Virus record (IMG/VR): IMGVR_UViG_3300026512_000014
Location: 1 to 60,996 of that record
Direction: 5' to 3' (one strand)
DNA from: a virus
DNA: 60,996 nucleotides
Shown: piece after piece, positions 2,472 through 49,621 of the stretch
Numbering within the stretch: the first letter of the stretch is position 1
Layout of the letters: every line of letters starts with the position of its first letter
Made by a program: the position numbers and the translations under genes
The notes under the pieces: generated by a model
Databases searched by the model: none
What the model saw: only the letters and a program-made list of their open reading frames with translations
What the model was told of the DNA's origin: nothing

Positions 2472-2876
2472 TTAAGACTCAAGATTGTCCTTAATAAGCC
2501 CCATAACCCGCTTACAATACTTGTCAGCCAGGTTATCTTTCCTTGGAATCTTAATTATGTCTATGTCAATGCGTTCATTAAGTGCATTAACAGTAGACAC
2601 ATAATGTTTAGTGATATCATTTTTGGCCTGCCATTCACCGGTAAGCCACTTGATAAGACCTTCATAGTCTACATAACAAGTGACTTTATCATAACCGTTA
2701 TCAATAGCAAACTTAATTGCCTCAATAACGGCCTGGCACTCACCAGCAACCTGTCTTGTATCAGAATCAACCTGTCCAAAATTAATATGGATAGTATCTT
2801 CCGATACATATGCCCAAAATGATTTACCGGGAATCTTATCAGTATAAGACCCGTCGCAATACATCTTTAACTCCAT
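2472..2876 (-). CDS. Possible separately translated RNase H (in-frame internal start)
   Basis: Within the polymerase gene, GGAGGT (2881-2886 on the + strand as ACCTCC) lies four bases before an in-frame ATG at 2876. Translation from there would give 134 aa, exactly the RNase HI domain: CDGS with D8, GECQAVIEA with E46, YVDYEG with D70, and ADKYCK with D118. The full-length frame is open across this point, so the domain may exist both fused and free. Alternatively, the sequence is chance within codons for Leu-Glu-Val-Asn. RNase H cleaves the RNA strand of RNA:DNA hybrids, so it could remove R-loops or primers. Confidence 0.5.
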   Translation of the reverse strand: MELKMYCDGSYTDKIPGKSFWAYVSEDTIHINFGQVDSDTRQVAGECQAVIEAIKFAIDNGYDKVTCYVDYEGLIKWLTGEWQAKNDITKHYVSTVNALNERIDIDIIKIPRKDNLADKYCKRVMGLIKDNLES

Positions 2877-5747
2877 GTTTACCTCCAAATTAGAAAACTG
2901 GTAGGCCACATCATGCAGCCTACCATTTTCATTAAGGTTATTAAAATGCTCCACGAATATATTAACTATATTCTTTGGAGCAATACTAAAGAACGCACTA
3001 TCAGAAACCTTTGATGAGAGGAATGCCCAACAGACTTCCTCTTTAATACCAAGTTGCTTGGACAAGTTTCTGATATATCTATGGGTTTCTACACCAAGAG
3101 TATATATAGCCACGTTAACCAGCGATAATATCTCTTCTTCTCTATCAGATTCCACTCTTTTAACATAAGAAACCATCGACATGAAGAGATTGAACATCTG
3201 ACCAACAAGATAAAAACGTGGCCAATACTCTTTATTATTGGATAACTTGTTATACTGCTTTACAAGGCCGTTGGTATAAATCCAATCCTGATATATATAT
3301 CTATATGAGAAACCAACAACCTTGGAAGTCCATCTTGTGAATTTACCTCTGATGTCTTGTATATGAACTTCAGCAGTACCAAAGTCTTCATCAGACTTTA
3401 CAAGTTCTCCAAACCTTGTACACCACTTATGCAGAACAGACATATAATGTGCAAATAATTTATGAATCTGTTCCGTACCAGTAAATGCACTATACACACA
3501 AGAAAGTCTCCTCAAAGCAGAGATACTAATACCACGAAACTCCTTCAGTACAGCCCTAAATGTATCAACTTTCACAAATATTTTAGAGTTTTCAACATAA
3601 TAAATCTTCCTCACGAAAGCATCCACTCTGGCCTGTATCTCTGCCGGTGTAAGCAGACCCTCAATGTTCTTCTTCTGTGCATTAATAACCCCTTGTTGTT
3701 GAGCAAAGAGGAACTCAATGAGTTCATATGCTTCTTTAATCAACTTAGGGTTACGAAGAGGTTTAATGGGAATAACTCTGTCGCCTATTTGTACCTCTCC
3801 AGCACCAGTAAGAAAAGCATGTATCTGGTCTGCAAATCTTTCAACCATACCGATATGCGCATCATATTGTAAAGCAATAAACAAATGCAAATCGGATACG
3901 GTTTTAATGTAAGCAGGAACCTCAGGTAGTTTCACATGTGCAAGTGGCGCCACAGGACAACTCCTCAAGCACTTCAAAAACTCACCACTAAACAGGGTTA
4001 TATCATCACCATCAAAATCATGTCCACTCAACACCCTATGTGGCGCATTCATATGCATAAATGCAAAACTACCAAGGCCTTCATCATTAATAACAACATA
4101 CTCAGCAGGACAGTCTCCAGTGAAGGTAACTGGATTCTTATATACTCCTACCTTATATGCCCCATCTGCAACAGATGGTAAATCAAGACCGCTTACATTG
4201 GCAATGATGATTCTATCAATAGGATATAACTTCCTGCCAATATATACCCTTGCACCCTTGGTAATAAAACCAAGACCATGGATATATGCTTTAAAAGCAT
4301 CCATAGGCAAGGATGTAGCGGTACAAGTTGTACCTTTCTTTGTTGCAGACAAGTCGACAGTGAAGAGCCTGCGCACATAACCTTTAATAATAGTAGCAGC
4401 GTTGTCTTTGCGCAATACCTTTAAATTACCAGGCAATCCCATTTTAACTGCAACGCCATAAGGTGTAGAAATGCTGGCATTCTTTACAAGCAGGTCTATA
4501 TTGAATTTCGTATTGTCTCTCAACACCTCAACTGCTTTAGCATTATCGAAATTCCAATGATAGAACACGAACTGCTGCGACAACTGTGCACCTGCTTTAT
4601 AATCGGTATCAGTTTTCATCACCAGAAATTCATCTGGTGTGAAACTAAGCCCTTCCATATCCCCAACCAATGCATCTTGGTTGAGAATAATATCTGTCTT
4701 CTTCACCCATTTAGGACCAAGTCCCTCTGCAAGTTTCTCCCATACGGGTTCAGAAACTTCAACAAAAGTACCTTTGGCCCACAACTTGTTAGAAAAACTA
4801 ACAAGTGTGCCTTGAAAAGCAGTAAATGTATTAAACTTCGATGCTTTAGATAATCTCTTCAAGACACCTGGACGAAACCAAGCAACTACGCCGTCTGCTT
4901 CAGGAACACTGATAGCAGCGGCTTTAAGTTTTCTGTTCCCAACAAGAGGCATACCTTGCCTAAGCAAAAGTACACCAATCTTTGAGAACACCTTAAAATT
5001 TAAACTGCTGTTAATATAGTTGTCATTAACATAAGATATAATACCCATAACAGCAGCAACCTCACGAACCAAATCTTCAAGACGCATTTTCTTTGTTGTA
5101 TATATAATTCTGGATGCACCAGACTTGGGAGCAAATAATACTACTTGCTCAAGGTTTGTGTTATTAACAATTTTAAGTCCCTTTTCGGGTTTACCGCCAG
5201 ACAATACGTCAAGAACATTCCTGACTAAATCACGTCTGGTCAATAAATCCTTGTCAAGAGACTCATCATCCACCGCAATCTCAAAAGACAAGGTGTCAAG
5301 CATTAAATGCTTGAACTTATCATAATGCATATCCAAGACAGTTGGTCTATCCCAGATGTACCTTGTCTCTTCCGTGAGAGTATACTCCACATCATTTGTC
5401 CTCTCAATGACAATGAATCTTCTTTCGAAGATATCAAAGCCTTGAGAAGCAAACTTACGGATTGCTCTCTTGGAAAACCTCTGCCCTGCGATGAACGCAT
5501 ATGCCTGTTGTTGCAAATTAATATTTGTTATAACCTCAGGCAATGTTGCAGCGTTACACACTCTTGCGAGTTGTGCCGCTACTGCGAACCTCGCATAAGA
5601 GAAACGATTGATGAACCTGACCAATGTTGTTACAACCATCTTTGTAAGACGGCTGTTCTCTTCCTCTTTAGCAGAGTCGAGGAATGCGATAAACTTCCTT
5701 GCGAACTTGTTCATCGTATGGATTACAGAATCAATAAGATTCAACAT
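2472..5747 (-). CDS. Single-chain DNA-dependent RNA polymerase (double-psi beta-barrel type) with C-terminal RNase H domain
   Basis: This 1091-aa protein carries HDFDGDD with the three Asp at 577, 579 and 581, the metal-binding signature of the beta'-like barrel of cellular-type polymerases. About 40 residues upstream is KNP (537-539), where cellular enzymes have NRxP. The layout resembles YonO and crAss-like phage polymerases, in which one chain does the work of beta and beta'. Residues 958-1091 form an RNase HI domain with all four acidic residues (D965, E1003, D1027, D1075). I place the start at 5747, not the in-frame ATG at 5783, because AGGAGG sits six bases before it. It lies in the leftward arm away from virion genes, so is probably made after infection. 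An internal ribosome site precedes the RNase H domain. The polymerase call is firm; promoter specificity is unknown. Confidence 0.88.
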   Translation of the reverse strand: MLNLIDSVIHTMNKFARKFIAFLDSAKEEENSRLTKMVVTTLVRFINRFSYARFAVAAQLARVCNAATLPEVITNINLQQQAYAFIAGQRFSKRAIRKFASQGFDIFERRFIVIERTNDVEYTLTEETRYIWDRPTVLDMHYDKFKHLMLDTLSFEIAVDDESLDKDLLTRRDLVRNVLDVLSGGKPEKGLKIVNNTNLEQVVLFAPKSGASRIIYTTKKMRLEDLVREVAAVMGIISYVNDNYINSSLNFKVFSKIGVLLLRQGMPLVGNRKLKAAAISVPEADGVVAWFRPGVLKRLSKASKFNTFTAFQGTLVSFSNKLWAKGTFVEVSEPVWEKLAEGLGPKWVKKTDIILNQDALVGDMEGLSFTPDEFLVMKTDTDYKAGAQLSQQFVFYHWNFDNAKAVEVLRDNTKFNIDLLVKNASISTPYGVAVKMGLPGNLKVLRKDNAATIIKGYVRRLFTVDLSATKKGTTCTATSLPMDAFKAYIHGLGFITKGARVYIGRKLYPIDRIIIANVSGLDLPSVADGAYKVGVYKNPVTFTGDCPAEYVVINDEGLGSFAFMHMNAPHRVLSGHDFDGDDITLFSGEFLKCLRSCPVAPLAHVKLPEVPAYIKTVSDLHLFIALQYDAHIGMVERFADQIHAFLTGAGEVQIGDRVIPIKPLRNPKLIKEAYELIEFLFAQQQGVINAQKKNIEGLLTPAEIQARVDAFVRKIYYVENSKIFVKVDTFRAVLKEFRGISISALRRLSCVYSAFTGTEQIHKLFAHYMSVLHKWCTRFGELVKSDEDFGTAEVHIQDIRGKFTRWTSKVVGFSYRYIYQDWIYTNGLVKQYNKLSNNKEYWPRFYLVGQMFNLFMSMVSYVKRVESDREEEILSLVNVAIYTLGVETHRYIRNLSKQLGIKEEVCWAFLSSKVSDSAFFSIAPKNIVNIFVEHFNNLNENGRLHDVAYQFSNLEVNMELKMYCDGSYTDKIPGKSFWAYVSEDTIHINFGQVDSDTRQVAGECQAVIEAIKFAIDNGYDKVTCYVDYEGLIKWLTGEWQAKNDITKHYVSTVNALNERIDIDIIKIPRKDNLADKYCKRVMGLIKDNLES

Positions 5748-5827
5748 TCCATACCTCCTTTCCTTCCCTCCGTTAATTACCATGACGCATAAGCGTCAAC
5801 CAACAACGCACAGTTGTTTTGTTCTCT

Positions 5828-7086: not shown

Positions 7087-7100
7087 TATTACCTCCTTCC
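7087..7100 (-). promoter_or_regulatory. Orphan extended Shine-Dalgarno, leader B
   Basis: GGAAGGAGGTAATA on the - strand, about 80 bases upstream of the start at 7010, without a start codon at usual distance. It directly follows the structured leader. Confidence 0.55.
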
Positions 7101-8410: not shown

Positions 8411-8424
8411 TATCACCTCCTTTC
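8411..8424 (-). promoter_or_regulatory. Orphan extended Shine-Dalgarno, leader A
   Basis: GAAAGGAGGTGATA on the - strand, about 65 bases upstream of the start at 8346 and directly after the structured leader. Confidence 0.6.
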
Positions 8425-8626
8425 ATAAGCGTCATCTGAGACACACTCATGCACACGCACACATCAGTGTTAACTTATAGTCATACGTGCACGTGCACGT
8501 TGTCTCCGTGATGCAATGCTTGCGTATACTTAAACAACTTGGGCATTGCAATCCCCTCAAAAACGGGGTTATTTTAATAAGCCCAATACGCAATCCTCTC
8601 ATAAACGAGGTAAACGTACACGCCAA
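8424..8626 (-). ncRNA. Structured leader RNA, copy A
   Basis: On the - strand GCGTGTACGTT (8623-8613) pairs with AACGTGCACGT (8501-8491), allowing two G-U pairs. Inside are a CCTC/GAGG hairpin (8610-8595), a second CCCC/GGGG hairpin (8568-8553) with a near-identical loop, and long-range stems TTGCGTA/TACGCAA (8593-8587 with 8526-8520) and TGCAATGC/GCATTGCA (8550-8543 with 8519-8512). Compared with copy B it has one extra hairpin module. The change of CCTC/GAGG to CCCC/GGGG keeps pairing. It precedes the four-gene unit 8346-7539. Confidence 0.6.
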
Positions 8627-8644
8627 GAGTTATATATATAACTC
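8627..8644. promoter_or_regulatory. Perfect 18-bp AT-rich palindrome
   Basis: GAGTTATATATATAACTC, preceded on the - strand by ATAGTG as at 5856-5871. It sits between the terminator 8702-8722 and structured leader A, at the expected promoter/operator place. Confidence 0.45.
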
Positions 8645-10771: not shown

Positions 10772-11392
10772 ATGGATAGATTCACGCCTGCAATAAATAA
10801 TCAAGGGATAACTGATAAGAATTACACTATATATAAATTCGGCACTGATGCCAAAATGTATATTGACGGGTTTTATATTAAAGAAGCAAATGCTATTATG
10901 TATAGAGAACATATAGACAGATTGCCTTACTTTGGTTATGACAGTCAATACTTTGATTATATATTAGAAGGCAGAAGTTATGTTTCAGGAACTATCGGAT
11001 TTAATGTATATACTCCTCAAGTATTTTATAAGATATTAAAAGCGCTTGGATATGATTATTATGTTTATAAAGAAAATAGCAAAGATAAAAGTCAATTAGA
11101 TGTATATTTTGATTCACAAGGTGAAGAAGAAATTATTGACATAATATTAAGTCAGGATTATAGTAAACCCAATGATGACTACGAAGATTTTACTTTACCG
11201 CCTAAATATTTTGATATTAGATTAGTAATACAAAATGAATTTGAAGAAATAGAACACGTGTTACTTATTAAAGATGTATATATATTAGGAATGCAAACTG
11301 CTTATAGTAAAGATGACCAGGTTATAGAGTTTTATAATTTTATTGCTAAAAGAATAAGTTCAACTGTTTATAAGGAGGGCGAATGGATATAG
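10772..11392 (+). CDS. Unknown 206-aa protein
   Basis: The ATG at 10772 follows GAGGAG at about 11 bases. The protein is rich in Tyr and Asp (for example YDYYVYKENSKDKSQL) and contains a likely beta sandwich. No family recognised. Its end overlaps the start of the protease gene by ten bases, so the two are co-translated. Being at the head of the packaging genes, a structural or head-assembly role is likely but unproven. Confidence 0.75.
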   Translation: MDRFTPAINNQGITDKNYTIYKFGTDAKMYIDGFYIKEANAIMYREHIDRLPYFGYDSQYFDYILEGRSYVSGTIGFNVYTPQVFYKILKALGYDYYVYKENSKDKSQLDVYFDSQGEEEIIDIILSQDYSKPNDDYEDFTLPPKYFDIRLVIQNEFEEIEHVLLIKDVYILGMQTAYSKDDQVIEFYNFIAKRISSTVYKEGEWI

Positions 11393-12105
11393 TTCAAAAA
11401 GATATTTATGAAGAAATGATATTGAAAAGCAGAAGCATATATATTACAAATAATATTACAATGGAAAATATGATTGAAGCAAAATTATTATTTGATAGGT
11501 ATAGAATGTTAAGCAATAAAGCGCCTATTCATATATATATTAATAGTCCTGGTGGAGAAGTTAATGCCGCATTTATGCTTGTTAATGATATTGTCTTACA
11601 TGATGTTCCTGTAATCACATATAACATAGGAGAAGCGGATAGTGCAGCGTCATTTATATTTATAAGCGGTAATACAAGAATTATGTATCCTCATAGTTCT
11701 ATTATGATGCATTCAGTAAGGGCAAACCCATATGGCACCACTACTAATATTAAACAATATACAAGTTTTCTTCATAAACTTGATGAATATATAATTAAGT
11801 TTATTAAAACACATACATTGCTTGATGATGAAACCATACATGATATAGTTGTTAATAATAAGGAACATTATTGGGTTGGTGATGAAGCAATAGAATATGG
11901 TCTTGCAGACCAACTATATCTTGGAACTGATTTTGTAGAACCCATATGTTCTGATAGGTCTGAATTTCATTTTGCATATTTAATAGATGAAGAAAAAGAA
12001 AGTGGAGATAATAATAGAGCAAACAAATTAAGAGAGGAATATTATAATGTCTCAATTAAAAGACATAGCAAAATTAAAAAAAGAAATACTAAAAAAGACA
12101 AATAA
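11383..12105 (+). CDS. ClpP-like serine protease
   Basis: 240 aa with a clear ClpP fold. IYINSPGGEV (51-60) is the oxyanion glycine strand, S87 in GEADSAASF aligns with the catalytic Ser, and H110 in PHSSIMMHSV with the catalytic His. GDEAIEYGLAD is the usual helix after the third active-site residue, where the expected Asp seems replaced by Glu in NKEHYWVG. Residues after about 205 form a basic extra tail. ClpP-like proteases in other phages cut head proteins during capsid maturation. Here a second, different protease is fused to the scaffold (22801-24126), so this enzyme may process other virion or cargo proteins. Confidence 0.88.
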   Translation: MDIVQKDIYEEMILKSRSIYITNNITMENMIEAKLLFDRYRMLSNKAPIHIYINSPGGEVNAAFMLVNDIVLHDVPVITYNIGEADSAASFIFISGNTRIMYPHSSIMMHSVRANPYGTTTNIKQYTSFLHKLDEYIIKFIKTHTLLDDETIHDIVVNNKEHYWVGDEAIEYGLADQLYLGTDFVEPICSDRSEFHFAYLIDEEKESGDNNRANKLREEYYNVSIKRHSKIKKRNTKKDK

Positions 12106-33408: not shown

Positions 33409-34128
33409 ATGGCATATAATGCAACAAATCTCAATCCCACTGCTACAAGTTATACTTTTAGCAGTGTATCTGGGGTTGATATTAAAATGGTATTCCACGG
33501 AAGAGTAATTGGTGAAGTCCAGTCTTTTTCTTACAGATTGCAGAGACAAATTGTACCGGTTTATACACTTGGAACACAATATGCAAGGTCTTTTGGCTAT
33601 GGTACAACTGCAATCGCTGGGCAAATGTCATTTATTTTGACAAACAGAAATGCTCTTCTTTATGGAATCAGAGAGATTATGGCCGCTGGCCACTCATTAG
33701 AAAAACCATGGCTTGACAGAGAAGATGCTAAGCCTGACATGTTTGGCCCGAATGATGTCGCTGCTCCAATTGTTAATGCTAATGATACTAATTTTACAAC
33801 AGTTGGTGTAAGAAGAAATGATAATATCGTGGCAAGTCCGGTAAGTGAAACTGACCCTTATGTATACGTTGGTGAAGATAATTTAAACACTTCTCTTATA
33901 GAAGACCAAATTCAAATGCTTCCCAACCACGTTGGTGAAATTCCTCCATTTACTGTAACAATAGTGTCATCAAATGAAATGGGTCAAAGTTCAGTTATGA
34001 AAGTTCATGGCGTTAAATTACTTGCAGAAAGTTATGCAATTTCAATTGACCACATTACATCAGACCTTGTATTTGATTTCATTGCATTGTCAATTGACCC
34101 ATGGACACCAATTAATAGACAACAATAA
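33409..34128 (+). CDS. Tail tube protein
   Basis: 239 aa directly after the sheath. Beta-rich, with FHGRVIGEVQSFSYRLQRQ and GTTAIAGQMSFILTN, the strand pattern of the tube fold, and ending in HGVKLLAESYAISIDHITS. A terminator follows. Related to the next gene product, which shares SYxI/L-R, VYTLGT/IYSLGN and IAGS/Q. A loop insertion of about 60 residues (DAKPDMFGPNDVAAPIV) is specific to this copy. Tubes form the inner channel for DNA. Confidence 0.82.
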   Translation: MAYNATNLNPTATSYTFSSVSGVDIKMVFHGRVIGEVQSFSYRLQRQIVPVYTLGTQYARSFGYGTTAIAGQMSFILTNRNALLYGIREIMAAGHSLEKPWLDREDAKPDMFGPNDVAAPIVNANDTNFTTVGVRRNDNIVASPVSETDPYVYVGEDNLNTSLIEDQIQMLPNHVGEIPPFTVTIVSSNEMGQSSVMKVHGVKLLAESYAISIDHITSDLVFDFIALSIDPWTPINRQQ

Positions 34129-34222: not shown

Positions 34223-34888
34223 ATGAGTATATTTGATACACCACAATTTGCACAAGATTATAAAGAATTTGAAAATGAACATAAGGCATTCCAAACATTT
34301 TCAGGTGCCGACATACATGCATATATTCCATATTATGATGGTAGCAATGTAAGAATTATTAAATTTTCAGAAATACAAACAATAACGTATTCAATACACA
34401 GAGCAACAAAAAATATTTATTCACTTGGCAATCCATTACCTGTTGGTGTTGTTCAAGGTAGCAGAACAATTGCAGGTTCTTTAATTATGTATAAATTTGA
34501 TATGGATGCAATGTCCGAAATATTTAAAATATCATCAAATAATGCTATTATGCTTGACCAGTTACCACCATTTAATATATTAATAGATGTAGCAAATGAA
34601 ATGGGAATAAGAAGATATGTAGGAATATATGGTGTTAAAATAATAACAGAAGGACTTGTTATGTCTATACTTGACTTGTCAACAGAAGTAACATGCCAAT
34701 ATACAGCAATGGATATTGAACCATTAAGAGAATATAAAGAATTTGAAGCAAGAATATTACAATCAAATTATCCTACAATGGCTATTGATTTTCAAGAAAT
34801 TATAGATAATGAAACAGGTAGAGCACAATTTAGAAATAATCCTGTAAAACAAAGTAACGATATCTTAAACGATATAACAAATAGATAA
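34223..34888 (+). CDS. Tail tube-like protein, second copy (221 aa)
   Basis: ATG at 34223 after AGGAGG. Aligns with the preceding tube protein over most of its length (DIHAYIPYYDGSNVRIIKFS; ITYSIHRATKNIYSLGN; SRTIAGSLIMYKFD; YGVKIITEG). It lacks the inserted loop and has an extra C-terminal tail. It probably caps the tube or initiates it at the baseplate. It lies after the terminator, so may be less expressed. Confidence 0.78.
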   Translation: MSIFDTPQFAQDYKEFENEHKAFQTFSGADIHAYIPYYDGSNVRIIKFSEIQTITYSIHRATKNIYSLGNPLPVGVVQGSRTIAGSLIMYKFDMDAMSEIFKISSNNAIMLDQLPPFNILIDVANEMGIRRYVGIYGVKIITEGLVMSILDLSTEVTCQYTAMDIEPLREYKEFEARILQSNYPTMAIDFQEIIDNETGRAQFRNNPVKQSNDILNDITNR

Positions 34889-39000: not shown

Positions 39001-39960
39001 ATTGAAGCATATAAACATAAAGTTATACAAGGTAATGAGTCTGCTATATGGGGACATCCTTGGCGTGATTTTATAAGGCCATTTGTGGGGAGAATAGCGG
39101 GCTTATTTACAGATAAAGTTATGCCATGGGTAAAAAAACATAGACGTAATGAAATGTATCTTGATTATCTTAAATATGTAAAATATAGTAAAGCAGCAGA
39201 AATGTCTATGTACAGTGGCGATATACAAAATGCTTATAAATTCAAACAAATAGCATCAACAACAGCGGTTGCGGTAAACCCATATAAATCATTAATGGAA
39301 GTTTATCCTACACTTCCAAAAGAAGAACGTCCATATTTTATACACTTTGCAAAAGAAACAGATAAAGAAAGACGTAAAAAAATATTAGAAATGACATCAC
39401 CAATAATGAAACGTATATATAAAGCAAGATGGGAGTTATTAGATTATGCAAAAGCAAAAGAGGAATATGAAAAAGGAAAACTATCAGAAGAAGAATTCAA
39501 AAAGTTTAAAGAAAAAGTAAAACAACATATTGCACATGCAGAAGAAAGAGAAGAAGAATTATTTAGCCCAGAAATATTAAGTGAAGTAAAACAACTCCCT
39601 GAAACATATGGCAATGAATATACTGTTCCATTAACACAATGGGAAGGATATAGTCCACGTGTATCAATGACAGAATTAAAAGTTGGATTTCTTGAGTCAA
39701 TTGGCGAAGACCCAATAGATTACCGTATTCCTAAAAAAGAAATATTAAGATTAAACCATAAAGAACCAGAAGAATATTTTAGCAATATATCAATGTTTGA
39801 TAAAATTGATATGGGAATATATAATATGGGATTCAGTAATTTAAAACATAGATTAAAAAATATAATATATAATCGCAATGGGAGTGATAATTTACAACAA
39901 CATGTTTATACAATCGAATATAGACCAAAAATTAAATACGCATTTGAGAGGCATAATTAA
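36043..39960 (+). CDS. Tape-measure or injected virion protein candidate (1305 aa)
   Basis: The frame opens at an ATG at 36043, 32 bases inside the previous gene, with a weak ribosome site. It lies where a tape measure is expected, directly after the chaperone pair. Two hydrophobic segments are visible near residues 400-430 (SLGVAFGNIMMAGINTYIG) and 505-530 (TAMIIAGILSIPNVIFG). The C-terminal third is charged and helical (EEYEKGKLSEEEFKKFKEK), and the middle is Pro- and Tyr-rich. No peptidase or lysozyme motif seen. Alternatively, it is a cargo protein that accompanies the polymerase encoded next. Confidence 0.6.
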   Translation: MLPNKISQEYKDRPPKQVGPLHYLRSRVRNPNNIRVSPSVAAYKKARDDNERLLNYVSPLTTAALKTTVPLYFLSQIKDIDITSQTIRNWYLSQPFNNIYKNYPFPTEAEARNATIKVGDVIHQLFVNLESFASPISWLQPSSSLSPFLIPTSNKSLVISPQQIKKDIKYWKEVIDKANYPGFFDSIKTELLESGIIVENGVPKINNALRTVVAPRAKFVQKILELNTRRQVSQTWLAYRVKNKAGYHPGSYRESFNILLGKSTADIYYKWFKAQVRAYSLRYFRLLDDPLEFLSSFIGFETGVERTALYKSFKNKFGVGGAKYYGESLYKLWLRHIGLVGKNIILPLIAAKYTHEKLKDIHIESGIFTPIAYTGATLDIGRSIYGKPFKAIADVGDKFVPGMSSLGVAFGNIMMAGINTYIGARLFQSIRTSETYEAFYNIANTFTPLNKKGLEWLRPLSKIQQKAYLREKVKYEIPELLKKFMPSKLGEFIEKRIGSVSHMGKAARTAMIIAGILSIPNVIFGTARLLGGEKDTSTLIQEYTGHKNVPVYQSHDWLFGQQYRGGEFAAYMGPNWFQRMIHDYRGKTLWRNNESAEFRTLKSIPIIQDIIKPYYLEETNFKHQPYPITGPTTSFLGPIGPLYGATLGQLFKPTKYMFPEQWALTQKDALKKYEQEKIPTAIYQQTVAPIQPHQQSVMQEVYGTPLNEPFIFDVTKPARGKGIEPLISPYSAPILTAQAISAWQETIGLPGYISRLLVTNPEEWYSQYNVLPSASEINSLSEQYYYMNLGDYGQTEAWRRIVILQNAARKEYNMIQNDQPEWMPDEGFYIKFRHGDPYRQIYRGYERIPGPGLTERKEFANLKGVEYKNYPLSARLLILGDIAMTSDHFKQTYMVVDKLVKEGKATKDEEAALKRVRSEFIQKISSRKFLPYSNKEDLLQWSSLNPIKGVFRLAQTLEELIVHASSPLSELLPVAPKEKFSIHETPIEAYKHKVIQGNESAIWGHPWRDFIRPFVGRIAGLFTDKVMPWVKKHRRNEMYLDYLKYVKYSKAAEMSMYSGDIQNAYKFKQIASTTAVAVNPYKSLMEVYPTLPKEERPYFIHFAKETDKERRKKILEMTSPIMKRIYKARWELLDYAKAKEEYEKGKLSEEEFKKFKEKVKQHIAHAEEREEELFSPEILSEVKQLPETYGNEYTVPLTQWEGYSPRVSMTELKVGFLESIGEDPIDYRIPKKEILRLNHKEPEEYFSNISMFDKIDMGIYNMGFSNLKHRLKNIIYNRNGSDNLQQHVYTIEYRPKIKYAFERHN

Positions 39961-42900
39961 TGGCTAAAGATTTTTGGGATTATTTAGGTGAAACAATATC
40001 AACTGTCGGATTTGGATATGCAGCAGTTAGTTCTGCAAAAAACGTATATAAATCAAAAGAGTTTAAAGAAGCACTAAATAATTTTCAACACTATGTGTCT
40101 GGAGATAAAAAACAAGTAGTTGAAACCATTATAGAAGAGCCAGTAACACAAACTGTTACAAACAAAGCAACAACTAAATCAGCAGAAGATGTCGCTTCTG
40201 TATCAAAGAAAATGATAAATCAACAAAAAGAAATACAAGAAAAATTTATAAGTTTATATGATGACATAGCACGTAGTATGCATAAAGTTAACAGAACGTC
40301 TATGAATATTTTTAAAGAATATATTCCAGAAGACAAAATGCTTATAGAAGAAGAACTACCATATATTAAAAAGTTTCATGAAAAATTTAATGCAAAAGTA
40401 AATGAAAATATACAATCTCTTATTGAAACTAATTTAGAAAGAATAACACTTAATTTAAACTTAACAGAAGACCAAAGGAAAATTATTAAAAAAACAAGTG
40501 ATATTAGAAAAGAAATGTCTCTTATGCAAAAAGGATATTTCATAAAAGATATATATGGAGATGAAGAAGCGGGAAAAGCATTAATTAAACAAGCAGAATC
40601 ATTATTAAAAAAGAAAATAGTAGAAAGTTATAAACTAATTGATATAAAAAATATTGATGATGTTGAAATGTTATCGTCTCAAATACACAAGTCGTTATCA
40701 AATCTTGCAGGGTTATTAAAACCATTATCAGAAGATGATTCGCTTGTTTTTAGAGGTTTGTCAAAAACAAAACTTACAGAAACATTTGACAACATACCTG
40801 AAGTTATATCAAATGTGACAAGAGAAGAAGAACTTAACAAGTTATTTGAAGAAAGACATAATGTTACATTTGCAAACAGAGAACGGTTTAGTAATATAGA
40901 AAATATAATAAGCAAGCGTATTAATTTAAAAAAGATTGAAAAAGACATACAAAAAGGCAAAATGCCAATTAATTATATAGAAAAACAAAAAAAGAAAATG
41001 CTTAAAGATATAAATCAAGAAGTAATAGATATGTATAAGGGTATGTATAACAAAGCCATTGGCAGGCAGCAAAAGGCTTCTGAATATTATAATGCATTAA
41101 TTAAAGGAATTGAAGAAACCTCGTCTCCAGATTTTTCTTTTCAAGTAATCAATAAAGATGATACAAAATTATATATAGAAGATATTAATACATTCCTCGA
41201 TAAATTAAAAGAAAAAACAAAAGTAAGTAAAGATGTTCAAATACAAATAAACAAAGCAAAATCAACTATAAATTATTTTAATGAAATGTATAGAAATACT
41301 AATATAGAAGTTGTACCAGAATTATATTTTGAAACAGAAAAAGGAATTGAATCAATTGCTGGTACCATTAAGTTAAAACAAAAAGGTAAAAACAAGATAT
41401 TTGGCGAAATTGATATTGACATTGCAAACAACAAAGGATTATTAAGACGTGGCGATTCAATATATGTAGAACATCCACTTGCTAAACTATATACAGATGA
41501 TAAAGGAAGAAGAATATATGAAACAGTTTCAAAAGAAGAAGCAATAACACAAAAATTTCAAAGAACTGTAAGTGATTTAATGAGACAGGGTTATACACAG
41601 CAAGAAGCAATCAAAGTCGCATCAGAAGAAGTTAATAAATTTTCTATGTCTACATTAGAATGGATTGCGCCAAGAAGTATATATGATTATTACAAAGATA
41701 TTGAAACACCCGCCGTTAAGATAGCAAAAAGTAATTATAAAATACTTAATCCGGTAACATATGAGCCATATAATTTTTTCAATACAGAACAAATGTATAG
41801 CGAAGAAGGTGTTATTTTAAGAAAGCAAATTGGCTGGAAAAATGGGAAAAAGATATTCAAAGAGATGCCAATTGATTTTGAAAAAGTATATATATCAACA
41901 CCAAGCCAATTATATAAAAGTCTTGTTCCATTAGAAGGAATATACAATGAAACATATGGGTTATATTATAATCCAAACGAATTAAAGATATACAGGAATA
42001 CAGCAGTTGTTAAAAACTTATTATTTGAAGAAGAAAAAGGGTTGTTTAAACCAAAAGTATTCTTTGGTGATTATAATATCAAAACAGAAACAGGCGAAAT
42101 TAATTTATTATCAAAATTACAAGAAACAGCGTCAAAAATAAACGAAGAACAATTTGATAAAGAAACAAGAGAATTTATCAAAAGATTAAGAAAATTGCCC
42201 ATAATATCTGAAGACCAGTCAGCAATATTAAATAAAAATTTAGAAGATATGATTATAGGCAATTATGTATCAATGAAAGATGTTACATTAGAATCATTAA
42301 ATCTTAAGAAGGTATCAACACCAGAAGCACTTGAACTTGGATTTAAAGAAGAATTATTTAAATTATCAAAAGGTGAAAGAATTATAGTCAATAATAAGCC
42401 CTATAAATTGCCATCTGATTTATTTGTTACAAAAGCAATATATGAAGATGTACAAAAAGGTGTAAGAAATAAAATAACAACTGGTGTTTTAGAAGGAATG
42501 TTTGTTACAAATCTTGAAGAAGCATTACCAAAGTTTTTTGGTGTTGGTGGCTACAAGGTGTTAACTCCATTTAAAGTTGACACGGACATAGCAACATTAC
42601 TAATGAAACTTGGTTCAAACTCTGATGCAAGAAAATTTGTAGAAGATTATTTAGCAAAAAATCCAAATGATTTTGAAGGTCTTATAAAAGCAATATCACA
42701 AAATAGACAAATATTATTTGATTTTTCTTCTTATGTTGAAGATATGCCACATATTTTTTCTACTACTAAATCTGTCAAAAGTAATTTAAGAGGTGTTGGA
42801 ACACTATTTGATATATTAAAAAATAGCACAACACCAGAACAAAGAAAAACATTTGAACAATGGATGCAATCATTAGATATTAATGCAGGAACAAAAGCAG

Positions 42901-45530
42901 AATACTATGTCCAGGTGTTAGACAAGATGTTTAAAGATGAGTCTATGATTAAAAATGCACCAAAAATATTTGGACAAAAACTTGGTAATAGAATAGTAGA
43001 ACTTGCAAAAGAATATAAGAATCCAGACGGTGTCAAGAATATTGATTATGTTATGAGTATGACAAGAAAACTTCTTGCCGGTCAATCTGGGACATTAACA
43101 TCAGGTATATTAAACCAGGATATTCTTGTCGGAGACCTCGGAACATTTAACAGAGATGTATTTAGATATCTTGAAGAAAAAGCAAAACTTAATAATAAAT
43201 TTTATGGTAAATTTTTAGATACTCTTGAATCTTCACGTATCATAAACAGAACAAGAAGTCTTCAAACAATACAAGCATTTGCAGATGTTATAAAACAAAA
43301 AGATGCGGCAAATGCGGTTACATTAGATTTGCTTGAAAACAGAATATTATCACCACAAGGTGAAGTAATTGCAAAAGGACAAGCCGTTACAGATATTATA
43401 GAAGGATTGAAAAATTCAAAAAAAGCAGAAGAAAATCTAAAAGCACATAAAGACTTATATAATCTTTTAGAAGAAAAAGGATTTAACACATCTGTATTTA
43501 AAATAAAGAACACAAAAGAAACAAAATTAATGCCAATTCTTGCAGATGAGTTTAACTATCTAAAAGATATATTACAAAAAGGTAAAACAGAAATAGAAAT
43601 AGCAGGTGAAGTTGTATCAGAAGAAAATATAGTTTCAATTGTATCAAAAATTAGGTCATCATCGGCAAGATTTATTAGAGGATTTGCATCAAACAAAAAA
43701 GAATCAGAACAATTATATAATACATTTATACAAAACTTACGTGAATCATTTACATCTAAAAATAATTTAAGTAAGTTAATGTTTGAAGCAAGACCATTGG
43801 AGTCAATGCATGCAACAGCAGTATATGCACCACATTTAAAAACATCTGAATATGTAGAAAAACAAGTAAACAGGCTTGTCGAGACCATACAAAAAAGTGA
43901 CAATGCAGAAGAAATAATAAAACTCGCAGAAGAAGAGGGGTTAAGTTTAAAAGAATTTATAAAATCAAAAGCAGTTGTTGTTAATGCTGACCAATTAGAA
44001 CATGCAATAAGAAAAATACCTAAAGTTGAAAAACCAGACTTTATATTTAGTTTAATGACAAGATATCCAGTAGGTTCACCACAATCATTACAAACACACT
44101 TTGTTATAGGTGCACCAAAAGATATTATAGAAGAAGGAAGAGTTGCATTTTTGTCAAGAGCATCAATGAGTGCAGCATATGGTGATTATGATGGAGACAC
44201 ATTGCATTTTGTATTCACCAATATATCAAAAAATGAAGCAGAAAAAGGCGCATTAAATGATGCTGTTAAGTCATTAATAGACGAACATGTATTAAATAAA
44301 TCATTTGAAAAAGTACAAGAAAAAGTTAACAAAGGTATATCTGATGTCTTGGCAATGAAAGTTGCAGATGGTGGAACTATAACTGATGTTACAAAAGTAT
44401 TAAACGAACAGAAAATAACAGAAAAGGTATTAATAGGAAATATAACAAATATCATTAATAGAATATTTATAGCATCATCATATGGTACCAAAGATGCATC
44501 TCCATATGTTACGTCACAAATATTACATACTATTATGGAAAGAATTATTAAATCTAAAAAGAATATTTCAAATACAGAACAAATAGGTGAAATAACTAAA
44601 AATCTTTATCAAGTTCTTGATAAAATGTTAAGCGAAGGCACTTCTCCCGAACTACAAGATTCATTGTACAAGAACTTATCAAAATTTTTTGAGATGGCTG
44701 AATTTAAAAACACAACAAGCAAAGAAAACACAGAGTTAATGAGTGCATTTATAAATAGTTTAAAAGATTTAACAAAAACACAAGCACTCAATGACGACAT
44801 GTTAAATTATGTTAATAATCTTATAGGCGAACTTGAAAATGCAAAAACAGGAAGCGCAGATTATGTTGCAAAATTGTTAACAGAACATATATCAAATAAT
44901 ATAGACAAATCAAGAGAAGATATACAAAATTATATAAATATGTCAACCAAAAGAGTTCCAGAAACACCATTAGACCCAGCGGGTGTAAGAGCCCAAAAAG
45001 AAAGAATTAATGCAGAAAAGAGAGCGGCCGCTGCAAACATGTCAAATGATGCAGCAAGAGCAGCAGAGGAGGCAGCAGAAACAACAAAGAATACAGCAAA
45101 ACAAGCAACAAGAGTTGCTGAAGAAGCAAAAACAACACAAAGAGTAGTTGAGCAATCTTATAAACTCGGTGAAGATGTTATGAAACCATTATATAAGGCA
45201 ATATCTAAATCTGGATTTCTTAAAAAATCAATGTATGTTGGCCTTGGGATACTCGGCTATGAGGTTGCCAAAAATGTTATGACCGGTTGGGGACAAGATA
45301 AATTTGAAATACCAATTGCTGCAAAATCTGCATCTGAAATTGACCCATCATTAACAGATAATTATGATGTTATACATGTTGGTAATCCAACATTTGATAT
45401 TCATCTTGATAGTATCATAGATACAATATCATCTAAACGTGGTATAATGAAATTCGTGAATGGATTAACCGGTGAAGATTCTGTAAAAGTTACATTATAT
45501 GATAAACGTAATAATAGGAGATATATTTAA
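39960..45530 (+). CDS. Virion-module RNA polymerase (double-psi beta-barrel type, 1856 aa)
   Basis: GDYDGDTLHF has the three catalytic Asp at 1409, 1411 and 1413. About 40 residues upstream RYPVG (R1368, P1370) aligns with the NRxP motif of cellular beta', and the segment between (THFVIGAPKD, then VAFLSRASMSAAY) fits the barrel. The same arrangement occurs in crAss-like virion polymerases. The N-terminal 1200 residues are mostly helical without a clear match. The C terminus has an Ala-rich coiled coil, then a hydrophobic segment near 1755-1770 (MYVGLGILGYEVAK) and a basic end. It sits among tail genes, so is probably packaged and injected to transcribe early genes. Distinct from the polymerase at 2472-5747. 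Confidence 0.8.
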   Translation: MAKDFWDYLGETISTVGFGYAAVSSAKNVYKSKEFKEALNNFQHYVSGDKKQVVETIIEEPVTQTVTNKATTKSAEDVASVSKKMINQQKEIQEKFISLYDDIARSMHKVNRTSMNIFKEYIPEDKMLIEEELPYIKKFHEKFNAKVNENIQSLIETNLERITLNLNLTEDQRKIIKKTSDIRKEMSLMQKGYFIKDIYGDEEAGKALIKQAESLLKKKIVESYKLIDIKNIDDVEMLSSQIHKSLSNLAGLLKPLSEDDSLVFRGLSKTKLTETFDNIPEVISNVTREEELNKLFEERHNVTFANRERFSNIENIISKRINLKKIEKDIQKGKMPINYIEKQKKKMLKDINQEVIDMYKGMYNKAIGRQQKASEYYNALIKGIEETSSPDFSFQVINKDDTKLYIEDINTFLDKLKEKTKVSKDVQIQINKAKSTINYFNEMYRNTNIEVVPELYFETEKGIESIAGTIKLKQKGKNKIFGEIDIDIANNKGLLRRGDSIYVEHPLAKLYTDDKGRRIYETVSKEEAITQKFQRTVSDLMRQGYTQQEAIKVASEEVNKFSMSTLEWIAPRSIYDYYKDIETPAVKIAKSNYKILNPVTYEPYNFFNTEQMYSEEGVILRKQIGWKNGKKIFKEMPIDFEKVYISTPSQLYKSLVPLEGIYNETYGLYYNPNELKIYRNTAVVKNLLFEEEKGLFKPKVFFGDYNIKTETGEINLLSKLQETASKINEEQFDKETREFIKRLRKLPIISEDQSAILNKNLEDMIIGNYVSMKDVTLESLNLKKVSTPEALELGFKEELFKLSKGERIIVNNKPYKLPSDLFVTKAIYEDVQKGVRNKITTGVLEGMFVTNLEEALPKFFGVGGYKVLTPFKVDTDIATLLMKLGSNSDARKFVEDYLAKNPNDFEGLIKAISQNRQILFDFSSYVEDMPHIFSTTKSVKSNLRGVGTLFDILKNSTTPEQRKTFEQWMQSLDINAGTKAEYYVQVLDKMFKDESMIKNAPKIFGQKLGNRIVELAKEYKNPDGVKNIDYVMSMTRKLLAGQSGTLTSGILNQDILVGDLGTFNRDVFRYLEEKAKLNNKFYGKFLDTLESSRIINRTRSLQTIQAFADVIKQKDAANAVTLDLLENRILSPQGEVIAKGQAVTDIIEGLKNSKKAEENLKAHKDLYNLLEEKGFNTSVFKIKNTKETKLMPILADEFNYLKDILQKGKTEIEIAGEVVSEENIVSIVSKIRSSSARFIRGFASNKKESEQLYNTFIQNLRESFTSKNNLSKLMFEARPLESMHATAVYAPHLKTSEYVEKQVNRLVETIQKSDNAEEIIKLAEEEGLSLKEFIKSKAVVVNADQLEHAIRKIPKVEKPDFIFSLMTRYPVGSPQSLQTHFVIGAPKDIIEEGRVAFLSRASMSAAYGDYDGDTLHFVFTNISKNEAEKGALNDAVKSLIDEHVLNKSFEKVQEKVNKGISDVLAMKVADGGTITDVTKVLNEQKITEKVLIGNITNIINRIFIASSYGTKDASPYVTSQILHTIMERIIKSKKNISNTEQIGEITKNLYQVLDKMLSEGTSPELQDSLYKNLSKFFEMAEFKNTTSKENTELMSAFINSLKDLTKTQALNDDMLNYVNNLIGELENAKTGSADYVAKLLTEHISNNIDKSREDIQNYINMSTKRVPETPLDPAGVRAQKERINAEKRAAAANMSNDAARAAEEAAETTKNTAKQATRVAEEAKTTQRVVEQSYKLGEDVMKPLYKAISKSGFLKKSMYVGLGILGYEVAKNVMTGWGQDKFEIPIAAKSASEIDPSLTDNYDVIHVGNPTFDIHLDSIIDTISSKRGIMKFVNGLTGEDSVKVTLYDKRNNRRYI

Positions 45531-48500
45531 TGTATTTACAAATTAATAATATAAAACTAAATTTACCGCCAGAGGCAATTGCAATACAAGACCATTCTGA
45601 TATAGATATAAAACCATCTTTATTTAAATTGCCAAATATATCTCAAGCAGGGACAGTTAAAAAGAAAATCATTATCACAACTAAAATAGGCCCCTCATTA
45701 TCAGAAGCACATGGGAGGCATCAATTTCAACAATTATTTAACATGCTTGCTACAATGCCGTTTGTATATATACAAAATGAATATATAGCAAAAACAATAG
45801 ATGTTAATAACCCAAACATGTTTTATTTATGCGGTGTTGACGATGTAAATTTTGTATTTGAGAATAATTATGTAGAAGTTTCAATGACATTCACATTAAT
45901 ACATAGTAAGTTTTATTATAATTTTGATGATACTGATTTATATAAATTTATAGACAAAGATGGTAATTATACTCCTGTACCATTTAATGTTGATTATTAT
46001 CCGTTCCACGGCAATAGATATTTCGGAAAATACAATGAAGAAAATTATTTAACAAAAATACATATACCATATGATGTAAACATAATATATGAAACAATTA
46101 CAAATGACACAAAAGTAGATGAATTATTGGATAAACTTAAAAAAGAACACCCAGCGTTATATTCTGTACTTAAAAAATATAGAGAAACAGTAATAGAAGA
46201 AGACACAGAAGATATTGAAAAAGTAAACAAGACATACACATATAAAACAAAAAACAAAACATATAAATTAAAAACACCTGCTGAATTATTTATAGAAAAA
46301 TTTTATTCATTAAAAAAATATCTCGGACAGTTAACAAAGCCAATTTATAAAATTAAAACATTTACATTTGGCAACGATATAATTAAAAGATATGACAAAG
46401 TAAATTCAATAGTAATAAGAATACATCATAATAACATTTATCATAGAATATCAGGATTAACCACCCCTATATTACAAAATATGGGAGAGCCAGAAATTAC
46501 TGTACAAATGAATATTATGTTAACACAAGATGAAGAACATAATATATCTAATATAAATCTCACTTCATATATAGATAAATATATTGCATTATACAATTCA
46601 AAAGAAACAATAAACAAAAAAAGATTATTATCAATTGATAATAAAATACTTGACGCAATTAATTTAAAGTCATTTGTTGTTTTAGATTATATAACATCTA
46701 CAACTAATTCTCCACATTCAAGATTATTAAAACTTAATTTATTATATCAAAGAGAAGAAGATGACATGTTTCTGAAATACGAAGGTGAGGGATTAAACAG
46801 GCCCACATATAAAGACTGGCAAGAAGAAGTTTTTAATGATATAATACAATCATTAAGTGACATAGCAAGAGGTAAGAAGAAGTCAAAAGTTTTGACATCA
46901 AATGAAGCAATAAGTATATTTACAGCATGGACAAAAACAAAATTTATAAATATTATGTTATCTGAAATGTTTTTTCTTGATTATAATGAAAAGGAACAGT
47001 TATTAAGAGAATTGTATAAAAGAAAAGTACCAATACAAGAATTAATTGACAACGAAGATTTAACAAAAGATATAAGACCAATAGCAAACTCACCAATAAG
47101 ACCTGACATTATGCTCGGCGCACCATTGAAATCTCCGAATTATTATCTTAATATGGAACATAATATTTTACCTAAATTGTCAAAAAGACTCGAGACATAT
47201 GTACAATCATTAAATGACTATTTTGGTGGATATTATAAAGCATTTAGCGATTTTACATTTAATCAAATAGATAAATTTATTGATGTTGTAGACACCTCTA
47301 TTCAAAACAAGGGTGTGGTTAAAAATATATATAAAAAACAAATGTCTGATGCATTAAAATTAAATCAATCAATAAACAACATAAGAGAAATAACACACAC
47401 AATGCCATCAAAACATAATACCACTATAAAAAAGAACGTACATAACGAAGAAGAAAATCAAAAATATGTTGTAAAACCATCAAAAGAAAATCAAAATGCA
47501 CTTGATAAAAAAGCAATAAATGATATAGCAATGAAAACAATTAAAGACTATTTGTATAAATCGTTTCAACTTGGTAACAATAAATTTTATCCAGGTGTTA
47601 AAGTCTTTTTTATAGAAGATAATTCAAGAACATTTATGGGAGATATTAATCCTGTTAGTGGTAGAAGTGAATTTGCTGATGCAGATAGATACTTTTCAAG
47701 TTATAGGGTTCTTGGAGTGTCTGTTCATAAAGATAAATATAAACCTGATGATAATGCAATTATCTATTTTTATAATCCAGCGGTATACACACAGGCATAT
47801 AAAGATGATTCAAAACCTGCATATATAAACACAGAAGACAATATAGAACAGAAATTTCTTATTATGCCTGGTACCAAAGTTCAAATTTGGATGGGATATG
47901 GTAATAATCCTGATAATTATACTTTAATATTTAATGGAGTTATAACCGGTGCAGATGCGAATACAGCAGATGAAGTGATGGCACAAAATGGAATTAGAAG
48001 ATTATTAGCACAAGGTTATGGTAGAGAATTACTTAATCCTATAAACGAAGACATAGGCGAAGACTTAATAGCAACATTTGATACAGTATATGATTTACAA
48101 AAAGCAATATTATCATCACCAGATTGTCCACATCTTGGATATTATGATGTATATGGCTCATATACGTCAAGATATAAATGGGATTGGTTGCATGTTAAAA
48201 GATTACCAGCAGGTGCAGAAGATAATATATATTACACAAAAGAAGAATTAAAATTGTTAGACAGTTTTGGCTTGTTTAAATTTAGTACTGATGATACTGT
48301 TGATACATATGTTTACACTGGGCAAACAAAATGGGAAATGCTTGCTTCTATATTATATAGATTTCCATCAAAAGTACATGCTGTTTTACCATATGGAGAC
48401 AGGGCAACATATTATTTTGGCCCACGATTTGGTTATTATTTTTCAAGGCCACCAAAGAATAAATTAGAAGTTATTCTTAAAGAAGCCTTTAATAAAACAT

Positions 48501-49621
48501 ATAGTAGTAATATATTTGAATTTGGCCCAAAAACGTATGATGAAAAACATCAAGAAGGATGGTTTTTTGATAGAACGCCATTCTCATCAACAGAATATAT
48601 TACAATGTTTGCACAATATTCAGGATTTTCAGATGATATTATACAACCGTTTGCAAAAATGCATATTATAGATAGCAACATTAATTTAATAGCAAATGCG
48701 ATAACAATTGATGATAATCCTGTGTATACAAAGGTTAATATAAGATATGACGGGGAAGTTGACCCCAAAACAATGGTCGCAAAAACAGAAGAAAAGTTAA
48801 CAGTAAAATTACATGATGCAATCCCTGATGAATATATTCGTGTTGCAGATTTTCCTGCATATAATTGTAGAAGTGAATTTTATGCAAAAAGATTTGCGTC
48901 AAAATTCTTTATAGATAGTTTAAATAAAATGTATTCTGGCAAAGTGATAACAATAGGCGACCCAACAATAAAACCACATGATATAATCTTTTTATCAGAT
49001 GATAAAACAAATATGTACGGTTTCTTTGAGGTTAGAGAAGTTCTTCATATTATTGATGCAGAAATGGGATTTATAACTGTTATAACACCAGGATTTTTAA
49101 CAATGGCAAACGATTTTTATACCGGTGATGTAATAGGTGCAAATATAATATCATTTTTATTTGGCGTAGAAAATGCAAACTGGATTGCTAATTTAATTTT
49201 AGGATTTATGGGATTAACAGATAAATTTAAATCAATGTTCCCAAATCTTTCTGAAACAAAACTTGATGTAGACAGTGCCATTGCAAAGTTTTCTGGGATA
49301 GGCGCATTGCTTGATTTCTTTTCAAATGACTGGTTGTTTAATTTTAAAAGATATTATGATAAAACAGGATTCTCAAGATATCCATTTGCAACAACCATAA
49401 ATATAACAGGCATACCTATATTTATGATGCCATTATTTTATGATGGTACCCCATATTTATCAGGCGTACTTGGTCCTGCTGATTTTTATTTATGGTCTAC
49501 AATTGGTTCAAAAGAAATGCTTGATAATGTAACAAAATATAGATATACAAAGGAAACATCTGGAAGATTAACATTCTTTGAATGGTCACATGATGAATTA
49601 GAGGAGTTCTATAATGACTAA
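45530..49621 (+). CDS. Large baseplate/tail hub candidate (1363 aa)
   Basis: Follows the virion polymerase by a one-base overlap. The N-terminal 150 residues are a beta-rich domain (MYLQINNIKLNLPPEAIAIQ; KIGPSLSEAHGRHQFQQLF) like tail proteins that bind the tape measure. From about 690 there is a hub-like region (VKVFFIEDNSRTFMGDINP, IWMGYGNNPDNYTLIFNGVI, ITGADANTADEVM), and from 1080 more beta-rich sequence (NLIANAITIDDNPVYTKVNI). The gp27/VgrG-like resemblance is by pattern only. It probably forms the centre of the baseplate. Confidence 0.6.
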   Translation: MYLQINNIKLNLPPEAIAIQDHSDIDIKPSLFKLPNISQAGTVKKKIIITTKIGPSLSEAHGRHQFQQLFNMLATMPFVYIQNEYIAKTIDVNNPNMFYLCGVDDVNFVFENNYVEVSMTFTLIHSKFYYNFDDTDLYKFIDKDGNYTPVPFNVDYYPFHGNRYFGKYNEENYLTKIHIPYDVNIIYETITNDTKVDELLDKLKKEHPALYSVLKKYRETVIEEDTEDIEKVNKTYTYKTKNKTYKLKTPAELFIEKFYSLKKYLGQLTKPIYKIKTFTFGNDIIKRYDKVNSIVIRIHHNNIYHRISGLTTPILQNMGEPEITVQMNIMLTQDEEHNISNINLTSYIDKYIALYNSKETINKKRLLSIDNKILDAINLKSFVVLDYITSTTNSPHSRLLKLNLLYQREEDDMFLKYEGEGLNRPTYKDWQEEVFNDIIQSLSDIARGKKKSKVLTSNEAISIFTAWTKTKFINIMLSEMFFLDYNEKEQLLRELYKRKVPIQELIDNEDLTKDIRPIANSPIRPDIMLGAPLKSPNYYLNMEHNILPKLSKRLETYVQSLNDYFGGYYKAFSDFTFNQIDKFIDVVDTSIQNKGVVKNIYKKQMSDALKLNQSINNIREITHTMPSKHNTTIKKNVHNEEENQKYVVKPSKENQNALDKKAINDIAMKTIKDYLYKSFQLGNNKFYPGVKVFFIEDNSRTFMGDINPVSGRSEFADADRYFSSYRVLGVSVHKDKYKPDDNAIIYFYNPAVYTQAYKDDSKPAYINTEDNIEQKFLIMPGTKVQIWMGYGNNPDNYTLIFNGVITGADANTADEVMAQNGIRRLLAQGYGRELLNPINEDIGEDLIATFDTVYDLQKAILSSPDCPHLGYYDVYGSYTSRYKWDWLHVKRLPAGAEDNIYYTKEELKLLDSFGLFKFSTDDTVDTYVYTGQTKWEMLASILYRFPSKVHAVLPYGDRATYYFGPRFGYYFSRPPKNKLEVILKEAFNKTYSSNIFEFGPKTYDEKHQEGWFFDRTPFSSTEYITMFAQYSGFSDDIIQPFAKMHIIDSNINLIANAITIDDNPVYTKVNIRYDGEVDPKTMVAKTEEKLTVKLHDAIPDEYIRVADFPAYNCRSEFYAKRFASKFFIDSLNKMYSGKVITIGDPTIKPHDIIFLSDDKTNMYGFFEVREVLHIIDAEMGFITVITPGFLTMANDFYTGDVIGANIISFLFGVENANWIANLILGFMGLTDKFKSMFPNLSETKLDVDSAIAKFSGIGALLDFFSNDWLFNFKRYYDKTGFSRYPFATTINITGIPIFMMPLFYDGTPYLSGVLGPADFYLWSTIGSKEMLDNVTKYRYTKETSGRLTFFEWSHDELEEFYND

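What the first reader, a model, noticed from the sequence alone, without database searches (positions are those of the whole stretch)
39960..45530. Second RNA polymerase inside the tail gene block
The 1856-aa protein has GDYDGD at 1409-1413 and an upstream RYPVG at the spacing of NRxP in cellular beta'. Located between the tape-measure candidate and the baseplate hub, it is probably a virion polymerase. Together with the polymerase at 2472-5747 it would give the phage two unrelated-looking single-chain enzymes of the same fold, one injected and one made later. In known jumbo phages this pair consists of multi-subunit enzymes, and crAss-like virion polymerases come from podoviral phages, so a myovirus with this set would be a new arrangement.
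Basis: partly seen in the sequence, partly recalled or inferred. Interest (0 to 1): 0.88.

Follow-up and report, generated by a model that had tools for sequence, protein, structure and literature searches.

The report
RNA polymerase built into phage tail
A large tail protein of this virus carries the catalytic barrel of cellular-type RNA polymerases, and the same barrel sits in the same tail gene in many related big contractile-tailed phages, so these phages probably inject a transcription enzyme along with their DNA.

Summary
In detail: the 1856-aa ORF (39960-45530) has RYP at 1368-1370 and DYDGD at 1409-1413. Alone it matches no library. Tail synteny led to some 25 relatives (ME3, KLEB27-3, IMG/VR contigs) whose gene before, or rarely near, the baseplate hub also carries DxDxD. 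RxP and the three aspartates are the only invariant residues of the active-site alignment. A profile built without the window ORF finds it, and finds an annotated phage RNAP beta' fragment (BpSp RpoC, i-E 4.6e-6). Pfam RNA_pol_Rpb1_2 hits four relatives there (E 1e-5 to 1e-4). The AlphaFold model of one relative retrieves RNAP beta' chains and QDE-1; the window's own model failed (pLDDT 44). The gene stands where 0305phi8-36 has orf146, the assigned tape measure, so this may be a tape-measure-borne virion polymerase like Thermus P23-45 gp96, here in a contractile-tail lineage. Not shown: second barrel, activity, virion presence. The claimed second polymerase (2472-5783) is only a motif, though two relatives do carry a separate YonO-like enzyme. 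Verdict: RNAP-type catalytic domain very likely, injected polymerase probable; new variant of a known kind.

The parts
39960..45530 (+). 1856-aa tail gene carrying the RNAP-type catalytic barrel; positional homologue of 0305phi8-36 orf146 (assigned tape measure), ME3 gp36, KLEB27-3 gp034
   Evidence: intact ORF; synteny with ME3/KLEB27-3; gene order of 0305phi8-36
43767..44234 (+). region of the double-psi beta-barrel of beta' type (DPBB-A), about aa 1270-1425; boundaries inferred
   Evidence: family profile without W matches 1362-1444; the same family region matches BpSp RpoC 215-396; fold hits of the relative L065
44061..44069 (+). RYP, counterpart of the NRxP motif of beta' (aa 1368-1370)
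   Evidence: R and P invariant in alignments of 15-17 family members
44181..44198 (+). GDYDGD, metal-binding catalytic triad DxDxD (D1409, D1411, D1413)
   Evidence: three Asp invariant in alignments of 15-17 family members
44544..44561 (+). IIKSKK (aa 1529-1534), aligned with a conserved downstream motif EQxPIS[AG]KH of relatives; possible bridge-helix/trigger-loop counterpart (speculative)
   Evidence: alignments (K nearly invariant in A11)
45222..45290 (+). C-terminal hydrophobic segment (about aa 1755-1777), shared in position with relatives
   Evidence: alignment; hydropathy of relatives (below the cut-off used for W itself)
45483..45515 (+). C-terminal VKVTLYDKRNN, aligned with the conserved end of relatives ([VI]N[VI]xIxDxR); likely assembly/docking tail
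   Evidence: alignment
   Evidence: synteny
45530..49621 (+). baseplate hub homologue (anchor used to find relatives)
   Evidence: tblastn to ME3, KLEB27-3 and MTATph1 hub proteins
2472..5783 (-). separate protein with GHDFDGDD and C-terminal RNase H; candidate non-virion polymerase, unconfirmed
   Evidence: no relatives found

Best explanation
The protein is a tail (probably tape-measure) protein with a built-in catalytic barrel of the two-barrel RNA polymerase superfamily, closest by sequence to the beta' subunit of jumbo-phage multisubunit RNAPs. Most likely it is packaged in the tail, passes into the host with or ahead of the DNA, and transcribes the first phage genes to enter, as P23-45 gp96 does. 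Shown by computation: the family, its invariant RxP and DxDxD residues, homology of the barrel to RNAP beta', and the conserved place in the tail gene cluster. Inferred: packaging, injection, catalytic activity, early-gene transcription, and that it is the tape measure itself.
For: Same position in KLEB27-3 (gp034, annotated 'structural protein'), ME3 and IMG/VR contigs, most carrying RxP...DxDxD. RxP and DxDxD are essentially the only invariant columns. Leave-one-out profile finds the window site. The same profile finds BpSp RpoC at i-E 4.6e-6; hhalign to BpSp RpoC E 1.3e-6 and to E. coli RpoC 422-470 E 0.015, against tail and virion decoys of 0.12 or more. Pfam PF00623 at this site in four relatives, E 1.3e-5 to 1.2e-4, with all 14 control genomes ringing. 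AlphaFold model of relative L065 (most active-site blocks pLDDT 72-89) retrieves RNAP beta' and QDE-1. Precedent: tape-fused vRNAP in P23-45 (PMC10770324).
Against: No direct family hit for the window protein itself; its link is through relatives at modest E-values. Its own AlphaFold model is poor and retrieves only helical bundles. The second barrel (beta type) was not found in the chain. TM-scores of the L065 fold matches are low (0.11-0.16), so only local fold is matched. Some relatives lack the domain (Moorella gp27, G005), so it is dispensable in the lineage. No virion proteomics for this virus.
Confidence: 0.72

Rival explanations
1. Split enzyme: the tail protein supplies only the beta'-type barrel, and the beta-type barrel comes from another virion protein, as in phiKZ-type multisubunit phage RNAPs.
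For: Closest sequence match is a jumbo-phage beta' fragment (BpSp RpoC); no beta-type barrel was detected upstream in the chain; several large undefined tail genes are nearby.
Against: The region upstream of the catalytic barrel is long and has its own conserved blocks, giving room for a diverged second barrel; no beta-like candidate was identified, though none was sought gene by gene. QDE-1, a single-chain enzyme, is among the L065 fold hits.
Confidence: 0.17
2. A tail structural protein that inherited an RNAP barrel but no longer transcribes (structural or DNA-binding role).
For: Surroundings are highly diverged; relatives exist without the domain; the residues between the aspartates vary widely.
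Against: The three aspartates and RxP are the invariant residues, the pattern expected of selection for catalysis, not of a relic.
Confidence: 0.08
3. Chance motif: GDYDGD and RYP are coincidental in the window protein.
For: D.DGD alone is not rare (18% of shuffled proteomes); the window protein has no direct database hit; a longer profile scores it only at E 0.022.
Against: Combined motif 0.1% in shuffles; the same motif at similar spacing in the same syntenic gene of relatives; leave-one-out profile match.
Confidence: 0.03

Closest known systems
Thermus phage P23-45 gp96 (tape-measure-fused virion RNAP) with gp64 non-virion RNAP
   Same: Two-barrel RNAP domain inside a giant tail (tape measure) protein; RNP...DFDGD motif with similar spacing; relatives exist that lack the domain; second single-chain RNAP in the same phage.
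   Different: P23-45 is a siphovirus with the RNAP at the N-terminus of a 5,002-aa protein; here the catalytic motif lies in the last quarter of the window protein, in contractile-tailed phages; no significant direct sequence match (aligns only at DFDGD).
Jumbo-phage multisubunit RNAPs (phiKZ, AR9/PBS2, BpSp RpoC)
   Same: beta' catalytic barrel; clearest profile match of the family (BpSp RpoC 215-396); large myoviruses; virion and non-virion enzymes.
   Different: Those enzymes are several separate proteins; here the barrel is embedded in one tail protein of about 1,400-3,300 residues.
crAss-like phage gp66 (phi14:2)
   Same: Virion RNAP in one very large polypeptide from the structural gene block, DxDxD catalytic site.
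   Different: Podoviral; family profile aligns at gp66 1313-1377 only at E 0.058.
YonO / QDE-1 / 0305phi8-36 gp99 (PF05183-like RNAPs)
   Same: Two-barrel superfamily; QDE-1 is among the top folds for L065. Relatives G006 and G008 carry such an enzyme elsewhere in addition to the tail one.
   Different: Separate genes, not the tail gene; no PF05183 match in the window.

Membership tests
Two-barrel (DPBB) RNA polymerase superfamily | DxDxD metal-binding triad in a beta'-type double-psi barrel | tested here: met
   DYDGD in window; invariant triad in family; profile match to phage beta' and Pfam RNA_pol_Rpb1_2 hits in relatives; fold of relative L065. For the window protein itself only through the family.
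Two-barrel (DPBB) RNA polymerase superfamily | Second barrel (DPBB-B) with basic residues | tested here: inconclusive
   No match of the upstream region to RpoB, gp66, gp96 or YonO; structure model of the window region too poor
Two-barrel (DPBB) RNA polymerase superfamily | NRxP-type motif about 35-43 residues before the triad | tested here: met
   RYP 41 residues before D1409; R and P invariant in family
Two-barrel (DPBB) RNA polymerase superfamily | Bridge helix and trigger loop after the barrel | tested here: inconclusive
   Conserved EQxPIS[AG]KH motif about 110 residues downstream in relatives, weakly kept in the window; assignment speculative
Virion RNA polymerase | Present in the virion and injected | not testable with these tools
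   Only position in the tail operon, and 'structural protein' annotation of KLEB27-3 gp034; the 0305phi8-36 paper calls orfs 143/144 the only non-structure genes near the tape measure
Virion RNA polymerase | RNA synthesis activity on phage early promoters | not testable with these tools
   No experiment
Tape-measure-fused RNAP (P23-45 type) | RNAP domain in the tape measure protein | tested here: inconclusive
   Position equals 0305phi8-36 orf146, assigned tape measure by length correlation; direct homology to orf146 could not be tested (record not held)
Multisubunit jumbo-phage RNAP | Catalytic beta' carried by separate short polypeptides | tested here: not met
   Barrel lies within one 1856-aa ORF of the tail block
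YonO/RdRP (PF05183) RNAP | PF05183 profile match | tested here: not met
   No PF05183 match anywhere in the window

The most novel reading that the evidence does not exclude
A widespread, previously unrecognised lineage of single-chain virion RNA polymerases built into the tape measure protein of large contractile-tailed phages, so that the tail ruler itself is delivered as the first transcription enzyme; together with P23-45 this would make tape-measure polymerases a general strategy across tail types, with the domain gained or lost as a module.
Probability: 0.45. Interest if true: 0.85.

Novelty: new variant of a known kind. Interest (0 to 1): 0.72.

Why it matters
If right, a gene listed as hypothetical or plain structural in isolated phages (ME3, KLEB27-3) and in metagenomic jumbo phages is an injected RNA polymerase. 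It would explain how this old phage lineage can start transcription without the host enzyme, extend tail-borne polymerases from one siphovirus group to contractile tails, and give cultivated test phages for how a polymerase, folded or unfolded, passes a tail tube.

Tried and rejected
Direct searches with the window protein in Pfam, PHROGs, PDB sequences and annotated phages found nothing; peptide-pattern scans of viral contigs with the window protein, its active-site stretch, the hub and KLEB27-3 gp034 found nothing. A DNA pattern for AYGD[YFS]D[GA]D returned one relative already known and two unrelated or unclear ORFs (L135, L136). hmmsearch of the core alignment against PDB gave only beta' hits outside the active site at E 0.38 and interleukin-4, treated as chance. 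A genome-contig scan gave no relatives and a second could not be run. The search for the second barrel by profile comparison failed. P0002 compared with known RNAPs: nothing significant. The window AlphaFold model (pLDDT 44) and its fold search are discarded as uninformative. The BFVD search with L065 gave no hit below E 0.001. 0305phi8-36 itself is not in the held collection.

Full report
What was checked. The window is a complete IMG/VR virus record of 60,996 bases, linear and probably a fragment. The ORF 39960-45530 encodes 1856 aa, with RYP at 1368-1370 and DYDGD at 1409-1413. Alone it matches nothing: Pfam, PHROGs, PDB sequences and 50,697 phage records are all empty. The motif pair is unlikely by chance (0.1% of shuffled proteomes) but D.DGD alone is not (18%), so the case has to rest on relatives.

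Finding relatives by synteny. The sheath, portal and hub of the window match three cultivated phages: Acinetobacter ME3, Moorella MTATph1 and Bacillus KLEB27-3. In ME3 and KLEB27-3 the gene directly before the hub is the counterpart of our ORF. KLEB27-3 gp034 (2434 aa, 'structural protein') contains NRYPTINQSTIQAM...LKADYDGD, and ME3 gp36 contains REPAQG...GGDHDQD. A portal scan and a hub scan of IMG/VR gave further contigs. Where the gene before the hub could be read, most carry R[YHWEFD]P, then a variable stretch, then DxDxD. In L070 the match lies in an earlier ORF than the one directly before the hub, and in L063 the RxP-to-DxDxD spacing is much larger. The domain is absent in MTATph1, where the locus is also interrupted by an IS21-like element, and in G005. 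Many more distant hub-bearing contigs gave no match to the active-site profile, so the domain is typical of part of the lineage, not all of it.

Statistical links. Across alignments of 15-17 members that include the window protein, the invariant columns are the R and P of RxP, the three aspartates, and one or two isolated P or G; in the active-site alignment they are the only invariant columns. A profile built without the window ORF finds it at E 5.5e-5. In a set of 2,977 ORFs from all loci held, the top of the list is family members, the window ORF (i-E 4.5e-4) and the annotated RpoC fragment of Bacillus jumbo phage BpSp (i-E 4.6e-6); E. coli RpoC appears at its DFDGD at i-E 0.56; the first ORF without DxDxD comes at i-E 3. 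hhalign of the family profile gives E 1.3e-6 for BpSp RpoC and 0.015 for E. coli RpoC at NRAPT...ADFDGD, against decoys of 0.12 or more. A longer profile still finds BpSp RpoC (215-396, i-E 3e-6) but scores the window ORF only E 0.022. Pfam RNA_pol_Rpb1_2 hits KLEB27-3 and three IMG/VR records at exactly this gene, E 1.3e-5 to 1.2e-4, all below the curated cut-off; the window itself is not hit.

Structure. The window core (aa 930-1760) with 16 relatives gave a poor model (pLDDT 44, pTM 0.24) whose fold matches are helical bundles and mean nothing. The equivalent core of relative L065 gave pLDDT 63, pTM 0.51, with most ten-residue blocks around the active site at 72-89. Foldseek against PDB returned RNAP beta' subunits, plus the single-chain RNAP QDE-1, as its top 50, best E 4.4e-4, probabilities mostly above 0.9, but with low TM-scores, so the match is of local fold. 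No second barrel was identified by sequence. Whether the enzyme is single-chain is therefore open.

Which tail protein is it? In 0305phi8-36 the order is chaperonins 143/144, orf145, orf146 (tape measure, assigned by correlation with tail length), orf147 (hub). ME3's own notes equate gp33, gp35 and gp37 with proteins YP_001429634, 636 and 638 of 0305phi8-36. By that count ME3 gp36, and our ORF, stand at orf146. This is positional inference; the 0305phi8-36 record is not held. The lengths in the family (about 1,430 to 3,260 aa) are compatible with a tape measure. If correct, the closest functional precedent is P23-45 gp96, a tape-measure-fused virion RNAP (PMC10770324).

The second polymerase. 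The ORF 2472-5783 has GHDFDGDD and a C-terminal RNase H. It has no relatives in the lineage and no profile match to known RNAPs, so it remains a candidate only. That such a pairing exists in this lineage is shown by G006 and G008, which have the tail-gene motif and a separate PF05183-type (YonO-like) enzyme.

Mechanism proposed. The protein is packed in the tail lumen, leaves with the DNA, and its barrel transcribes the first genes to enter. Packaging, injection and activity are inference from position, from the annotation of KLEB27-3 gp034, and from P23-45.

Verdict. RNAP-type catalytic domain about 0.9; functional injected virion RNAP 0.72; being the tape measure itself about 0.55. New variant of a known kind. 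Within the open-access papers searched I found no report of it for this lineage; subscription literature and the supplementary RNAP survey of PMC10770324 were not readable, so prior listing there cannot be excluded.

Noticed in passing
5856-5871 and 8627-8644: A 16-nt perfect palindrome GAGTTATATATAACTC next to hairpins and strong terminators upstream of the leftward genes (including the 2472-5783 gene), nearly repeated at 8627; 6 matches within 3 mismatches against 0.87 expected. Possible phage promoter or operator.
   Followed up: partly
7087-7209 and 8411-8533: 123-nt direct repeat, 81% identical, in the leftward early region, overlapping short ORFs.
   Followed up: no
L003:24539-26781 (Moorella phage MTATph1): IS21-like transposase and IstB-like ATPase genes interrupt the homologous tail gene region (gp27 / gp31), whose parts show no DxDxD.
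   Followed up: partly
L003:20513-24442 and L004:23004-30308: Moorella gp27 carries an RNase_T/DnaQ-like exonuclease domain (PF00929); KLEB27-3 gp034 has a matching segment near its N-terminus: a nuclease in the same tail protein family.
   Followed up: partly
L156, L157, L158 (records G006, G008, G007): PF05183-like (YonO/RdRP-type) RNA polymerases with GGAD[VYF]DGD in relatives of the window phage.
   Followed up: partly
33409-34128 and 34223-34888: Two adjacent paralogous genes of the same PHROG (9206); the equivalent KLEB27-3 genes are annotated tail tube proteins.
   Followed up: no
2472-5783: DFDGD-containing protein fused to a C-terminal RNase HI domain, without detectable relatives outside the RNase H part.
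   Followed up: partly
11383-12105: ClpP-like protease (PF00574, E 1.8e-28) in the block upstream of the terminase; possibly a prohead protease or a host-type Clp subunit.
   Followed up: no
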